DNA of 64,000 nucleotides, from assembly GCA_910575585.1 (NCBI GenBank), contig CAJTGF010000005.1:1-64000 (forward strand). The letters are read 5' to 3'. The DNA comes from Clostridiaceae bacterium. Lineage in GTDB: Bacteria > Bacillota > Clostridia > Lachnospirales > Lachnospiraceae. Positions 49,939 to 54,297 of this stretch are shown piece by piece (position 1 is the stretch's first letter; each line of letters begins with the position of its first letter). The notes beneath the pieces were generated by a model, which made no database searches, was not told the origin of the DNA, and saw only the letters and a program-made list of their open reading frames with translations. A program made the position numbers and the translations under genes.

Positions 49939-51342
49939 ATGTACAGAAAAGAGATTGACGCGTATCTTGACAGCCACACTTCCCAGATGGTGGAGGATAT
50001 TTTTACTCTGTGCCGCATCAACAGCGAACGGATGCCGAAAGAGGAGGGCATGCCTTACGGAAAGGGAGCCAAAGAAGCCCTTGACGCAGCTCTCAAAATG
50101 GCAGAGGGGTATGGCTTCCAGGTGCGCAATTACGACAACTACGTGGGGACCGCGGATTTAAACGACGAGGAAACCCAGCTGGATATCCTGGCCCACCTGG
50201 ACGTGGTTCCGGCGGGAGAGGGATGGCAGGTGACAGGGCCTTTTGAGCCTGTAGAACGGGACGGACGCCTTTACGGCAGGGGAACGGCCGACGACAAAGG
50301 CCCGGCTGTAGCGGCTCTCTACGCCATGAGGGCGGTGAAAGAACTGGGCATCCCTTTAAAGAAAAATGTGCGCCTTATTGTAGGAACGGATGAGGAATGC
50401 GGCAGTTCGGATATTGAGCATTACTACAAGATCGAAAAGGAAGCGCCTATGACGTTCTCGCCGGACGCGGAATTTCCGGTGATCAACGTGGAAAAAGGCG
50501 GTCTGGCCGCCCATTTTACCGGTTCCTTTGAGAAATCCTGCCACAAAGCAAGGCTTGTGTCCCTTGACGCCGGCATCAAGATCAACGTAGTGCCTGCCAA
50601 GGCATTTGCCGCAGTGGAAGGTCTGTCCATGGAGACTCTTGAGGAGGCGGCAGAAGCGGCTGCGAAGGAGACCGGGATCAGCTTTTCCTTTGTTGAGGAA
50701 GGAAGCCTTATAAAGATCACGGCCCAGGGCGTCAACGCCCACGCGGCCCACCCGGAAGGCGGCAACAACGCGCTTACGGGGCTGCTTTCCTACGTATGCA
50801 TGCTTCCTCTGGGGGACTGCGCCCAGATCAAGCGCCTGAAAGGGCTTATGGAGCTGATTCCTCACGGAGATCTGTACGGAAGGGCCATGGGCGTTGCCAT
50901 GGAGGACGAGATCTCCGGAAAGCTGACCCTGGCTTTCAGTATGCTGAATGTGACCGAGGATCATCTGGAGGGCCATTTTGACAGCCGCTGTCCCATCTGC
51001 TCCACCAAAGACAATGTACTGGCAGTGGTGAAGGAGAAATTTCTGTCTATTGGCCTGACGCTCCACAACGACTCCATGAAGCCGCCCCATTATGTGGACG
51101 GAAACGGAGTGTTTGTGCAGACGCTGCTGAAGGCCTACGAGAACTATACCGGGAGAAAGGGGCAGTGTCTCTACACCGGCGGCGGCACCTATGTCCATGA
51201 GTTAAAGAACGGGGTGGCCTTCGGAGCGGCCATGCCGGGGACGGACAACCACATGCACGGGGCCGACGAGTTTGCGGTCCTTGAAGAGCTTTTGGTCAGC
51301 GCCAAGATCTTTGCCCAGGTCATTGTGGATCTGTGTTCGTGA
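49939..51342 (+). CDS. pepV: Dipeptidase PepV-like (M20 family)
   Basis: 467-aa metallodipeptidase of the PepV/Sapep type, acting on dipeptides in the cytoplasm. Metal and catalytic blocks are DILAHLDVVPAGEG, YGRGTADDKGPAV, VGTDEECGSSD, TFSPDAEFPVIN, GVNAHAAHPEGG, YTGGGTYVHEL and MPGTDNHMHGADEF. The length is standard. The methionine transport unit begins just after it and has its own promoter. Confidence 0.94.
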   Translation: MYRKEIDAYLDSHTSQMVEDIFTLCRINSERMPKEEGMPYGKGAKEALDAALKMAEGYGFQVRNYDNYVGTADLNDEETQLDILAHLDVVPAGEGWQVTGPFEPVERDGRLYGRGTADDKGPAVAALYAMRAVKELGIPLKKNVRLIVGTDEECGSSDIEHYYKIEKEAPMTFSPDAEFPVINVEKGGLAAHFTGSFEKSCHKARLVSLDAGIKINVVPAKAFAAVEGLSMETLEEAAEAAAKETGISFSFVEEGSLIKITAQGVNAHAAHPEGGNNALTGLLSYVCMLPLGDCAQIKRLKGLMELIPHGDLYGRAMGVAMEDEISGKLTLAFSMLNVTEDHLEGHFDSRCPICSTKDNVLAVVKEKFLSIGLTLHNDSMKPPHYVDGNGVFVQTLLKAYENYTGRKGQCLYTGGGTYVHELKNGVAFGAAMPGTDNHMHGADEFAVLEELLVSAKIFAQVIVDLCS

Positions 51343-51360
51343 CAAATCCGCAAAAAGAAC

Positions 51361-51389
51361 TTGACAAGACCGCTTTAAGGGAGTAGAAT
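51361..51389 (+). promoter_or_regulatory. Promoter of the metNIQ leader
   Basis: TTGACA (51361-51366), a 17-base spacer and TAGAAT (51384-51389). Transcription would start near 51396, just ahead of the leader peptide's ribosome site. Confidence 0.85.
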
Positions 51390-51421
51390 ACCACACATAG
51401 AAAAATTTTGGAGGAACTGCA

Positions 51422-51520
51422 ATGTACAATTCAAAGTCCATGATGATGAATATGTGTATGACAGACGGCATGATGGTCATGTGCCGTGTGTTCATGCGCG
51501 TACAATTCAGTGGAGTTTGA
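51422..51520 (+). CDS. Methionine-rich leader peptide of metNIQ
   Basis: A 32-codon ORF with GGAGG at 51410-51414, seven bases before its ATG. The peptide starts MYNSKSMMMNMCMTDGMMVM and has ten Met in 32 residues, a density far above chance and just what a ribosome-sensing attenuator for methionine would need. It lies between a strong promoter and an intrinsic terminator that precedes the methionine transporter genes. A 10-base repeat, GTACAATTCA, occurs at 51424-51433 and 51500-51509, near both ends of the ORF. The role is inferred from layout and codon content. Confidence 0.8.
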   Translation: MYNSKSMMMNMCMTDGMMVMCRVFMRVQFSGV

Positions 51521-51541
51521 AGGTCTTGTAGGGACGACAGT

Positions 51542-51640
51542 GCTTGCGGAGGAAGAGCAGAAAGGCGTGGGAGAGTTACGCATCTGCTTTTCCCCCGGTG
51601 ATGGAGTGTCAGCCGTAAGTCTATGGGACTTACGGCTTTT
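51542..51640 (+). terminator. Attenuator: terminator and possible antiterminator before metN
   Basis: The terminator has an 11-bp perfect stem, 51611-51621 with 51627-51637, a five-base loop and a run of five T. GCTTGCGG (51542-51549) can pair with CCGTAAGT (51613-51620, two wobble pairs), which would destroy the terminator's 5' arm. A middle hairpin (51552-51561 with 51583-51592, one wobble) would sit inside that alternative fold. The terminator stands between the leader peptide and metN, so readthrough must be regulated for metNIQ to be expressed from this promoter. Confidence 0.75.
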
Positions 51641-51670
51641 TGGGTTGCTTTAAGAGGAATGGAGGGTATT

Positions 51671-52684
51671 ATGGAACAGCCAATCATCCAGATCAAAGGT
51701 CTGGGAAAAGAGTTTCAGACAACAGAAGGAAAGGTCCGGGCTCTGGGCGACATCAATCTGGATATTCAATCCGGCGAAGTGTTTGGCATCATAGGCTTAA
51801 GCGGAGCCGGCAAGAGCACGCTGGTGCGGTGCATCAACTTTCTGGAAGTCCCCACCGAGGGGGAAGTGCTTTTTGAGGGAGAGAGTCTGGGCAGTATGAA
51901 CCCGGCCAGACTCCGCAGGACGAGACAGTCCATGGGCATGATCTTTCAGCAGTTTAACCTTCTGGCCCAGAGGAGTGTGGTGAGGAATATATGCTTTCCC
52001 TTAGAGCTTACGGGAACGCCCAAGTCAGAAGCCAAAAAGAGGGCCATGGAGCTTCTAAAGACCGTAGGGCTGGAGGACAAGGCCGGGGCATATCCGGCAC
52101 AGCTGTCAGGAGGCCAGAAGCAGCGAGTGGCTATTGCCAGGGCCCTTGCCACCAATCCTAAGGTGATCCTCTGTGACGAGGCCACCAGCGCCCTGGATCC
52201 CAACACCACCAAGTCTATATTAGGGCTTTTAAAGGAGATCAACAAGACCATGGGCGTGACCGTTATCGTCATTACCCACGAGATGGCGGTGATCGAGGCC
52301 ATCTGCGACAGGGTGGCCATCATCGACAAGAGCCAGATCGCGGAGGTGGGCAAGGTGTCGGAGATCTTTTCGGAGCCAAAGTCCAAGATCGGCCGCCAGC
52401 TGATCCTGGGCGATGCGGCCAGGCAGGTAAAGTTCGGAGGTTCCAGGCAGATCCGCATCATCTTTGACGGCAGGGAATCCACGGAGCCGGTGATCTCCAA
52501 CATGGTGCTGGCCTGCAAGACGCCGGTGAACATTATGTATGCCCAGACCAGGGATGTGGGCGGCACCGCCATGGGACAGATGATCGTCCAGCTGCCCGGC
52601 GACGAGGCGGAAGCTGACAGGGCCCTGCGCTATTTGGAGACATCCAAGATTCCCTATGAGGAGGTAACGGAACATGACATTTGA
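51671..52684 (+). CDS. metN: Methionine ABC transporter ATP-binding protein
   Basis: 337-aa ATPase of the MetNIQ importer. Walker A is GLSGAGKSTLVRC, the signature is LSGGQKQRVAIARAL and Walker B is VILCDEATSALDP. The C-terminal NIL/ACT-like domain (about 260-337) binds methionine and inhibits transport when it is abundant. ATG 51671 follows GGAGGG; the longer frame to 51623 overlaps the terminator. It overlaps metI by 11 bases. Confidence 0.95.
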   Translation: MEQPIIQIKGLGKEFQTTEGKVRALGDINLDIQSGEVFGIIGLSGAGKSTLVRCINFLEVPTEGEVLFEGESLGSMNPARLRRTRQSMGMIFQQFNLLAQRSVVRNICFPLELTGTPKSEAKKRAMELLKTVGLEDKAGAYPAQLSGGQKQRVAIARALATNPKVILCDEATSALDPNTTKSILGLLKEINKTMGVTVIVITHEMAVIEAICDRVAIIDKSQIAEVGKVSEIFSEPKSKIGRQLILGDAARQVKFGGSRQIRIIFDGRESTEPVISNMVLACKTPVNIMYAQTRDVGGTAMGQMIVQLPGDEAEADRALRYLETSKIPYEEVTEHDI

Positions 52685-53339
52685 CGCTGCTACGATACAG
52701 ATGTTAAAAACAGGCATCTGGGAGACTTTTTATATGGTTTTTTTATCTTCGCTGCTGGCCTATGTGATCGGGCTGCCTTTAGGGATCGTGCTGGTATGCA
52801 CGGACACCGACGGCATCCATCCCATGCCTGCGGTCCAGAAGATCCTGGGGACGGTGATCAACCTTCTTCGGTCCGTGCCCTTTTTGATCCTTCTGTTCAT
52901 TGTCCTGCCTCTGTCCAAGATGGTCATCGGCACCCGGATCGGCTCGCCGGCCATGGTGATCCCTTTGACCATCGCGGCAGGTCCTTATGTGGCCAGGGTG
53001 GTGGAATCCTCTCTGCGGGAGATCGACGGCGGGGTAGTGGAGGCAGCCAAGTCCATGGGCGCTTCGGACTGGCAGATCATCTGGAAGGTGCTCCTTCCGG
53101 AGTGCAGGCCGTCTTTGTTAGTGGGCGGGGCTCTGGCGGTGACCACCATCTTAAGCTACTCGGCCATGGCAGGTTTTGTGGGCGGCGGCGGCGTAGGGGC
53201 CATTGCCATCAACTATGGGTATTACCGCTATGAGGCGGGCCTGATGTGGGTGTCCGTGGTGCTTCTTGTGGTGATGGTGCAGATTATCCAGGAGATTGGC
53301 ATGCGGATGTCCAGAAAAGGGGACAAGCGGATACGGTGA
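52674..53339 (+). CDS. metI: Methionine ABC transporter permease
   Basis: 221-aa inner-membrane permease with about five helices. The cytoplasmic EAA loop reads DGGVVEAAKSMGASDWQIIW and contacts MetN. The length is typical of MetI. It overlaps metN, which suggests coupled translation, and is followed by metQ. Confidence 0.94.
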   Translation: MTFDAATIQMLKTGIWETFYMVFLSSLLAYVIGLPLGIVLVCTDTDGIHPMPAVQKILGTVINLLRSVPFLILLFIVLPLSKMVIGTRIGSPAMVIPLTIAAGPYVARVVESSLREIDGGVVEAAKSMGASDWQIIWKVLLPECRPSLLVGGALAVTTILSYSAMAGFVGGGGVGAIAINYGYYRYEAGLMWVSVVLLVVMVQIIQEIGMRMSRKGDKRIR

Positions 53340-53397: not shown

Positions 53398-54297
53398 ATG
53401 AGAAAAACCATCTGTATTATGGCAACGGCCCTGCTGGCAGGCGTCCTTGCCGGTTGTTCCGCCAACAGCGGGACAGAGACTTTGGCAGAAAGTAAGACAG
53501 AGGCTTCAAAAGATGCCGCGGATGCCGGAGAGAGTACGGCGGACAATGGACAGGCTCCGTCCGGGGATCTTAAAAAGATCGTCATCGGCGCCAGCCCGGC
53601 TCCCCATGCGGAGATCTTAAGGGCAGCGGCAGATGTTTTGGCCCAGAAGGGCTATGAGCTGGACATCAAGGAGTACGTGGATTACATCCAGCCCAACCTG
53701 GCTTTGGAGTCCGGGGATCTGGATGCCAACTATTTCCAGCATCTGCCTTATCTGGAGTCCTTTAATGAGGAGAACGGCACAAAGCTGGTGTCCGCGGCGT
53801 CCATCCATTACGAGCCCTTCGGCATCTACGCGGGAAAGACCAAGTCTTTGGAAGAATTGGCCGACGGCGCCACAGTGGCTGTCCCCAATGATACCAGCAA
53901 CGAGGCCAGAGCCCTTCTTCTTTTGGAAGCTCAGGGGCTTATCAAACTGAAAGAGGGCGCGGATTTGACTGCCACCAAGAATGATATTGTGGAGAACCCC
54001 AAGAATATCAAGCTGTACGAGGTGGAGGCGGCGCAGATCCCCAGATCCATCAGCGATGTGGACGTGGCGGTCATCAACGGCAACTACGCCATCGACGCAG
54101 GATTTAAAATGTCCGACGCCCTGGCAGTGGAGGATTCCCAGTCCATCGCAGCCACTACCTACGGGAACGTTATCGCCGTGCAGGAAGGCAGGGAGAATGA
54201 CGAGGCCATCAAAGCCCTGGTGGACGCTCTCAACAGCGATCAGGTGAAGGAGTTTATAGAAAGTACCTACGAGGGAGCCGTGGTGCCCTTAAAGTAA
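53398..54297 (+). CDS. metQ: Methionine-binding lipoprotein
   Basis: 299-aa NLPA-family substrate-binding lipoprotein. The signal peptide ends in the lipobox LAGC (Cys20). An Ala/Ser/Glu-rich linker follows to about residue 55. The NLPA fold starts IVIGASPAPHAEIL, then YVDYIQPNLALESGDLDANY, HYEPFGIYAGK, VAVPNDTSNEARAL and YAIDAGF. It delivers L-methionine, and possibly D-methionine or its sulfoxide, to MetNI at the membrane. Confidence 0.95.
   Translation: MRKTICIMATALLAGVLAGCSANSGTETLAESKTEASKDAADAGESTADNGQAPSGDLKKIVIGASPAPHAEILRAAADVLAQKGYELDIKEYVDYIQPNLALESGDLDANYFQHLPYLESFNEENGTKLVSAASIHYEPFGIYAGKTKSLEELADGATVAVPNDTSNEARALLLLEAQGLIKLKEGADLTATKNDIVENPKNIKLYEVEAAQIPRSISDVDVAVINGNYAIDAGFKMSDALAVEDSQSIAATTYGNVIAVQEGRENDEAIKALVDALNSDQVKEFIESTYEGAVVPLK

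What the first reader, a model, noticed from the sequence alone, without database searches (positions are those of the whole stretch)
51361..51670. Methionine-rich leader peptide and terminator ahead of metNIQ: a candidate ribosome-mediated methionine attenuator
Seen directly: a TTGACA-17-TAGAAT promoter, a ribosome site, a 32-codon ORF with ten Met codons (including a run of three), then a perfect 11-bp terminator with a T-run before metN. GCTTGCGG at 51542-51549 can pair with the terminator's 5' arm and so act as an antiterminator. Known: Firmicutes usually control Met genes with S-box (SAM) riboswitches or Met T-boxes, and neither was seen here; Trp, His and branched-chain operons of proteobacteria use leader peptides of this kind. 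Inference: low charged tRNA-Met stalls the ribosome in the leader and allows transport genes to be read. I know of no described methionine attenuator of this type in clostridia.
Basis: partly seen in the sequence, partly recalled or inferred. Interest (0 to 1): 0.87.

Follow-up and report, generated by a model that had tools for sequence, protein, structure and literature searches.

The report
Methionine-rich leader peptide before metNIQ
Upstream of a likely methionine importer, this gut bacterium and many relatives carry a tiny methionine-stuffed gene followed by an RNA switch, which probably lets a ribosome short of methionine turn the importer on, and which in sister species is replaced by a different methionine sensor.

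Summary
The window holds promoter, ribosome site, a 32-codon ORF with 10 Met codons, terminator, then metN-metI-metQ. Among 84 distinct related MetN loci, 66 carry a Met-rich leader, 12 carry instead a T-box with an AUG specifier in that slot, 6 show neither. A profile of the peptide hits 22 of 397 family genomes, one place each, all before metN; 7 of the 25 before-metN hits were new leaders. The RNA has the four regions of a trp-type attenuator plus a hairpin inside the ORF. Hairpin and terminator covary clearly, the 1:2 helix modestly; the 2:3 antiterminator is conserved without covariation beyond shuffles. The folding model fits the relatives better than the window itself. Function (response to Met-tRNA charging) is inferred. 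A Met leader before metNIQ has been named once, in Streptomyces lividans; I saw none for Firmicutes in the listings searched.

The parts
51361..51389 (+). promoter TTGACA-17-TAGAAT
   Evidence: 11 of 12 consensus positions; 2 promoter-like sites in 51300-51720 on both strands vs 0.6 in shuffles
51410..51416 (+). ribosome-binding site GGAGGAA of the leader ORF
   Evidence: sequence; GGAGG before the leader also in the window-clade loci printed
51422..51520 (+). leader peptide ORF, 32 codons, 10 Met: MYNSKSMMMNMCMTDGMMVMCRVFMRVQFSGV
   Evidence: profile hits in 22 of 397 family genomes, all before metN; ATG triplets by frame in 61 distinct ORFs 539/11/35
51425..51441 (+). region 1: leader codons 2-7, pair with region 2 (UACAA with UUGUA 51526-51530; UUCAAA with UUUGAA 51516-51521; UCCAU with GUGGA 51510-51514)
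   Evidence: RNAalifold on 10 window-clade leaders, all three blocks; the window's own best fold has the last two blocks only
51465..51487 (+). hairpin inside the ORF, ACGGCAU...GUGCCGU (codons Asp15 to Met17 with Cys21-Arg22)
   Evidence: RNAalifold; 98.3% of cells paired in 10 window-clade rows, 95.2% in 49 other leaders; 13 double-change cells in three pairs
51510..51533 (+). region 2: overlaps the leader stop codon; pairs either with region 1 (off) or, by GGUCUUGUAGGG 51522-51533, with the terminator 5' arm (on)
   Evidence: 97.5% of cells paired in 10 sequences, 26-55% when slid; no covariation beyond shuffles
51542..51549 (+).
   Evidence: 8 bp possible in the window; 3.5-3.8 kcal/mol above the best fold when forced; mismatched in the other clade members (by eye)
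51551..51593 (+). spacer hairpin between regions 2 and 3
   Evidence: best fold; the spacer varies in length and sequence in the clade
51611..51641 (+). intrinsic terminator (regions 3 and 4) and T-run
   Evidence: conserved with double changes in relatives
51671..52684 (+). metN, ABC ATPase with NIL domain, regulated gene
   Evidence: Pfam ABC_tran and NIL; best NCBIfam model MetN, 348.6 bits, below its cut-off of 499.7
52674..53339 (+). metI, permease
   Evidence: Pfam BPD_transp_1; best NCBIfam model MetI, 202.6 bits, cut-off 212
53398..54297 (+). metQ, substrate-binding lipoprotein
   Evidence: Pfam Lipoprotein_9 E 2e-88; best NCBIfam models MetQ and MetQ/NlpA, below their cut-offs

Best explanation
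It is a ribosome-mediated transcription attenuator of the trp type that reads charging of elongator tRNA-Met and controls the methionine importer metNIQ. RNA polymerase transcribes the leader while a ribosome translates the Met-rich ORF. With enough Met-tRNA the ribosome runs to the stop codon, in or near region 2, and releases; region 2 is caught by region 1 (the early leader codons); region 3 is left to pair with region 4 and transcription stops before metN. When Met-tRNA is short, the ribosome stalls on the Met codons and covers region 1; region 2 then pairs with region 3 and metNIQ is transcribed. With no ribosome, 1:2 and 3:4 form and transcription stops. Shown here: the parts, their conservation, covariation of the ORF hairpin and of 3:4 and (modestly) of 1:2, conservation of 2:3, strict association with metN in the genomes searched, and a Met-specific T-box in the same slot in a sister clade. 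Inferred: stalling, the direction of the response, the identity of the signal.
For: Met leader before metN in 66 of 84 distinct MetN loci. Peptide-profile searches of whole genomes: 22 of 397 family genomes, one hit each, all before metN; with three further same-family genomes from the order search and one weak hit in another family, 25 of 26 fetched hit loci are before metN. Of these 25, 18 have the same leader DNA as loci already in hand (14 of the 25 have their core in the profile itself) and 7 are new; all 7 lie before metN, and no second place was hit in any of these genomes. Outside the family: one weak hit in the order draw of 344; none in the class (341) and phylum (348) draws, which share genomes and include family members. 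Met is held at codons outside the helices counted (codon 11 in 28 of 30, codon 14 in 28 of 30) while codons 12 and 18 change. 15 of 16 gaps in ORF columns 1-81 are multiples of 3. 1:2 plus ORF hairpin: 94.2% of cells paired, 17 double-change cells (13 hairpin, 4 in 1:2) vs 7.0 in shuffles, 0 of 500; 1:2 alone 93.8% vs 31-45% slid, covariation score reached by 2 of 500 shuffles; terminator 91.6%, 20 vs 5.9, 0 of 500; 2:3 89.5% vs 24-40% slid. All 49 non-window rows: 90.6, 95.2, 87.8 and 93.0% for 1:2, hairpin, 2:3 and 3:4. Folding model: mean 2:3 pairing 0.24 (no ribosome), 0.56 (ribosome at codon 14), 0.20 with shuffled region 2; 36 of 59 rise by more than 0.2. All 12 distinct T-boxes of the sister clade have GAACATG in the specifier stretch (four aligned to the model). 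20 leader loci scanned show no Rfam match at gathering. Own genome: S-box before metK; none of 9 T-box matches shows AUG at the specifier, read by eye.
Against: 2:3 shows no covariation beyond shuffles (194 of 500 reach the score; 416 of 500 in the window clade); 1:2 has one covarying pair only, and the number of such pairs is reached by 397 of 500 shuffles. One by one, 1:2 is matched by at most 5 of 100 shuffles in 21 of 59 leaders and 2:3 in 26 of 59; the window itself is not among them (82 and 10 of 100). No excess of third-position changes in the ORF (0.306, 0.299, 0.321). In the window the stall model hardly moves: 2:3 pairing 0.45 with no ribosome, 0.00 at codon 7, 0.51 at codon 14; all ten window-clade leaders give 0-0.12 at codon 7. 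The window's 2:3 helix is in the best fold of truncated transcripts starting at 51503 or 51521 but not at 51490. A ribosome at the stop codon leaves 2:3 at 0.43 on average, and only 23 of 59 leaders exceed that state by more than 0.2 at codon 14, so release and 1:2 formation must do the work. L086 and L091 keep a terminator before metN with no Met-rich ORF found. L094 fits 3:4 and 2:3 poorly (33 and 60%).
Confidence: 0.82

Rival explanations
1. The leader senses something other than Met-tRNA charging through its nascent peptide (arrest peptide), for example free methionine or SAM acting on the conserved C-terminal M-C-R/C motif, with the same downstream switch.
For: Met21-Cys22 (A1 numbering) are almost invariant (29 and 30 of 30); the peptide is conserved beyond Met (consensus MxxxxxMQMNMxMMxGMxMMCRMFxC); the S. 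lividans metL peptide ends CMCRRMCAF (PMC8079986).
Against: Cys22 and codon 23 lie in the ORF hairpin with double changes, so RNA pairing explains part of that conservation; Met number varies (7-13 in 74 of 75 loci that passed a cut of 5, near-copies included; one has 5), which suits codon counting better than a fixed arrest motif; sister species use a tRNA sensor in the same slot.
Confidence: 0.09
2. The ORF is a small functional Met/Cys-rich peptide (for example metal-binding) that happens to share the operon, and the terminator is constitutive or merely tunes expression.
For: High Met and Cys content; strong conservation of the core.
Against: Found only before metN (25 of 26 fetched hits); its codons take part in conserved RNA helices; its length drifts among near relatives (27 to 49 codons in the window clade); no Pfam or NCBIfam match for the window peptide.
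Confidence: 0.04
3. An unrecognised riboswitch or protein-binding RNA in the leader; translation of the ORF is incidental.
For: Conserved RNA structure spans the ORF; no third-position excess; L086 and L091 keep a terminator with no Met-rich ORF found.
Against: 539 of 585 internal ATG triplets are in frame, though the ORFs were chosen for Met; gaps come in threes; Met codons are kept outside the counted helices; no Rfam match.
Confidence: 0.05

Closest known systems
trp/his/leu-type ribosome-mediated transcription attenuators (Proteobacteria, Actinobacteria; textbook knowledge, recalled)
   Same: short translated ORF rich in codons of the regulated amino acid, mutually exclusive 1:2, 2:3 and 3:4 helices, intrinsic terminator before the operon
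   Different: amino acid is Met (one codon, also the start codon), controls an importer, phylum Firmicutes; no Rfam match
metL leader before metNIQ of Streptomyces lividans (PMC8079986, passages)
   Same: Met-containing leader peptide before metNIQ; peptide ends CMCRRMC(AF), resembling MCRMFxC here
   Different: transcribed leaderless, no typical terminator, 3 Met in 29 aa including the start (my count); no switch was laid out in the passages I saw
Met-specific T-box (RF00230) before metN in sister Lachnospiraceae
   Same: same operon, same slot, same presumed signal (uncharged tRNA-Met), transcription antitermination
   Different: binds the tRNA directly by RNA, needs no ribosome or ORF (recalled)
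His leader peptides of bacilli before hisS/hisZ in place of T-boxes (PMC2965389, passages); Leu-rich attenuator peptide of S. aureus (PMC5794164, listing and start of abstract only)
   Same: leader peptides in Firmicutes, the first replacing T-boxes
   Different: other amino acids and operons; sequence relation not tested

Membership tests
ribosome-mediated (trp-type) transcription attenuator | short ORF with ribosome site and clustered codons of the relevant amino acid | tested here: met
ribosome-mediated (trp-type) transcription attenuator | intrinsic terminator between ORF and first structural gene | tested here: met
ribosome-mediated (trp-type) transcription attenuator | antiterminator (2:3) exclusive with the terminator | tested here: met
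   pairing conserved: 87.8% of cells over 49 rows, 97.5% over the 10 window-clade rows in their own register; covariation not above shuffles
ribosome-mediated (trp-type) transcription attenuator | 1:2 helix between leader codons and the antiterminator strand | tested here: met
   modest covariation; the window clade uses another register (40% paired in the register of the other clades)
ribosome-mediated (trp-type) transcription attenuator | stalling at the regulatory codons shifts the fold from 1:2 to 2:3 | tested here: inconclusive
   model: 36 of 59 leaders shift by more than 0.2, the window does not
ribosome-mediated (trp-type) transcription attenuator | readthrough responds to charging of the cognate tRNA | not testable with these tools
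   needs expression or reporter data
T-box (RF00230) | covariance-model match before metN | tested here: not met
   0 matches in the window at gathering; none at E up to 10 in 51000-51900
S-box / SAM riboswitch (RF00162) | covariance-model match before metN | tested here: not met
   the one match found in the genome is before metK (150 of 376 first-look candidates were scored)
S. lividans metL leader | homologous leader (sequence or structure) | not tested
   only the published peptide was read; no alignment or search in actinobacteria was run

The most novel reading that the evidence does not exclude
The leader is a joint sulfur amino acid sensor: its conserved Cys codons (22 and 27 in A1 numbering) as well as its Met codons set ribosome position, so that the switch reads Met and Cys charging together; and because the leader's own initiation needs fMet-tRNA, the response is non-monotonic, on at moderate Met shortage and off again in deep starvation, when no ribosome starts and 1:2 and 3:4 form.
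Probability: 0.18. Interest if true: 0.75.

Novelty: new member of a known kind. Interest (0 to 1): 0.63.

Why it matters
Met control in Firmicutes is described as S-box or, in Lactobacillaceae, T-box (PMC4239095, passages). A Met leader-peptide attenuator shared by many Lachnospiraceae (loci named Hungatella, Enterocloster, Lacrimispora and others) adds a third way. The presence of a Met T-box in the same slot in a sister clade is a natural test that two unrelated RNA devices read the same signal. It also raises a testable puzzle: how a ribosome-based sensor can report shortage of the amino acid with which every ribosome must start.

Tried and rejected
Rejected: S-box or T-box in the window. 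Bipartite antiterminator UUGUAGG plus CUUGCGG with a bulge: forced, it costs 9.3-11.6 kcal/mol over the best fold. Single-sequence duplex shuffles gave mixed results; I think they have little power on AUG-rich strands, but the figures are reported. In one search a constraint was not enforced; one search repeats it properly. In one search the specifier pattern caught an earlier GAAC in L011/L040; one search shows GAACATG in L011 too, and one search aligns it for L040.

Rows dropped or unequal: the 59-row set leaves out L055 and L102 (script found no terminator; one can be seen by eye), L108 (pattern), and L050, L053, L092 (script picked a wrong terminator). Alignment A1 uses 30 of 49 non-window leaders, chosen by hand, and leaves out divergent ones (L065, L067, L090, L094, L100, L107 among 19); one search gives the pairing for all 49 and for the 19 left out (82.2, 95.6, 85.1, 93.2%). 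In L003 and L006 region 2 lies inside the longer ORF, so the stop-anchored model looks in the wrong place there. The peptide profile A3 was built from leaders found before metN, so most of its hits (18 of 25) are known leaders found again.

Not settled: the direction of the T-box/leader exchange (quick tree, midpoint root); what controls metN in the family genomes without a leader hit; the sensors of L086 and L091. Papers PMC1262725, PMC9413887 and PMC1183508 appeared in listings and were not opened.

Full report
What is there. Downstream genes are metN (ABC ATPase plus NIL domain), metI and metQ by Pfam and by the best NCBIfam models, all below NCBIfam's cut-offs; the substrate is thus likely but not proven. 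Upstream lies a PepV-type dipeptidase gene ending 18 nt before the -35 box. The Met share of the ORF is far outside that of 336 small ORFs of the window, and the leader RNA is much more stable than shuffles. Rfam finds nothing at gathering in the window.

Relatives. Searches with MetN gave 30 loci from 26 genomes of the genus and 80 loci from public genomes (capped at 80, more existed). After removal of identical MetN proteins and of matches under 400 bits, 84 remain: 66 with a Met-rich leader before metN, 12 with a T-box, 6 with neither. Of these 6, L044 and L082 have only about 147 and 224 nt of upstream sequence, L041 has almost no intergenic space, L086 and L091 have a terminator but no Met-rich ORF, L110 has nothing recognised. 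Met number, start included, is 7-13 in 74 of 75 loci that passed a cut of 5 (near-copies included); L087 has 5. Consensus of 32 peptides: MxxxxxMQMNMxMMxGMxMMCRMFxC.

Is it translated? Of 585 internal ATG triplets in 61 distinct ORFs, 539 are in the ORF's frame; as the ORFs were picked for Met content this is partly built in. Less circular: 15 of 16 gaps in the aligned ORF are multiples of three, and Met at codons outside the helices (codon 11 in 28 of 30, codon 14 in 28 of 30) is kept while codons 12 and 18 vary; RNAalifold does pair two bases of codon 14 with codon 9. Against: no third-position excess (0.306, 0.299, 0.321), as expected if RNA structure also constrains the ORF, but also if coding were weak.

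Is the link to metN real? The peptide profile was run through whole genomes: 22 of 397 family genomes (19 of 334 genera), one place each; in the order draw 7 of 344, six of the same family; class 2 of 341 and phylum 1 of 348, all of the same family; the draws share genomes. Of the 26 loci fetched, 25 lie before metN on its strand; the exception, L146 (E 0.0019), is in another family and has no metN. The profile came from leaders before metN, and 18 of the 25 are leaders already in hand; the fair test is the 7 new ones, all before metN, and the absence of any second hit in these genomes.

RNA switch. RNAalifold, without guidance, draws three helices in 30 leaders outside the window clade: leader codons CCAUGCAG with UUGUAUGG near the stop codon (1:2), a hairpin inside the ORF, and the terminator; the window clade gives a longer 1:2 helix in another register, again between early codons and the stop-codon region. 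The stop-codon strand, GUAUGGAUUGUGAU, can instead pair with the terminator's 5' arm and loop, GUCGCAAGUCUGUGC (2:3). Counts on A1: 1:2 plus hairpin 94.2% of cells paired, 17 double-change cells (13 of them in the hairpin) against 7.0 shuffled, 0 of 500; 1:2 alone 93.8%, covariation score reached by 2 of 500 and double-change cells by 19 of 500 shuffles, from one pair; terminator 91.6%, 20 against 5.9, 0 of 500; 2:3 89.5% against 24-40% when slid, no covariation beyond shuffles. A strand with two partners may well show that, but it is not positive evidence; and shuffles do not allow for relatedness. All 49 non-window leaders give 90.6, 95.2, 87.8 and 93.0% for 1:2, hairpin, 2:3 and 3:4. In the window clade the conserved antiterminator is GGUCUUGUAGGG (51522-51533) with CCGUAAGUCU (51613-51622), 97.5% of cells paired in 10 sequences although the terminator arm varies.

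Model. Folding the transcript up to the terminator loop, with the RNA under and before a stalled ribosome removed, raises mean 2:3 pairing from 0.24 (no ribosome) to 0.52 (codon 7) and 0.56 (codon 14); shuffled region 2 gives 0.20; 36 of 59 leaders rise by more than 0.2 at codon 14, and 23 of 59 exceed the ribosome-at-stop state (mean 0.43) by more than 0.2. The window clade fits badly: the window gives 0.45, 0.00 and 0.51, and all ten leaders 0-0.12 at codon 7. In the window 2:3 is in the best fold of transcripts beginning at 51503 or 51521 but not at 51490. These are equilibrium folds without kinetics; the mechanism in the window rests on its relatives.

The exchange with a T-box. In the clade next to the window's own, the slot before metN holds a T-box in the 12 distinct loci that could be classed, each with GAACATG in the specifier stretch (aligned to the model for four), hence Met. 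pepV lies upstream of metN on the same strand within 1500 nt in 36 of 66 leader loci and in 2 of 12 T-box loci (many flanks are cut short), so in at least two the swap concerns the same gene neighbourhood. Ignoring the unknowns the tree needs one change. The tree is quick and midpoint-rooted: leader first, T-box later, is the simpler reading, not proven. The window genome has an S-box before metK, so SAM and Met-tRNA would be read by separate devices.

Literature. Eight searches of open PubMed Central texts, seen as capped listings, showed no methionine leader attenuator in Firmicutes. PMC8079986 (passages) names metL before metNIQ in S. lividans, leaderless and without a typical terminator. 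PMC2965389 (passages) reports T-box/leader-peptide exchange for hisS and, in 2010, no leader peptide system known to its authors outside Proteobacteria and Actinobacteria save ermC. PMC8632094 (passages) describes a Cys leader before cysS. The trp logic is recalled. Subscription papers are not covered.

Verdict. A real, conserved Met leader peptide tied to metNIQ in part of the Lachnospiraceae, most likely a trp-like attenuator: new in specificity and lineage, known in kind.

Noticed in passing
L086 and L091, within 420 nt before metN: Both keep promoter-like sequence and a terminator before metN (in L091 GGTCGCAGGTCTGTGC..., the leader type) but no Met-rich ORF; by eye they share a stretch ending in TAGGAATT between promoter and terminator, perhaps a different sensor or a protein site.
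   Followed up: no
G000:C7:43894-44013 (L111): The one SAM riboswitch match found in the window genome lies before metK, so SAM and Met supply seem to be read by different devices.
   Followed up: partly
S. lividans metL (PMC8079986) versus the Lachnospiraceae leaders: The Streptomyces Met leader ends CMCRRMCAF, close to MCRMFxC here; convergence, chance or a shared arrest motif.
   Followed up: no
L001-L010, leader ORF ends: In the window clade the ORF length drifts (27 to 49 codons) while the RNA GGTCTTRTAGG near its end stays fixed, so the RNA rather than the peptide end seems to be under selection.
   Followed up: partly
L087, 500 nt before metN: Leader with only 5 Met codons but good antiterminator and terminator pairing: a possibly decaying or re-tuned sensor.
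   Followed up: no
window 51551-51593: The spacer between antiterminator and terminator holds a large hairpin in the window sequence; spacer length and sequence vary within the clade.
   Followed up: partly
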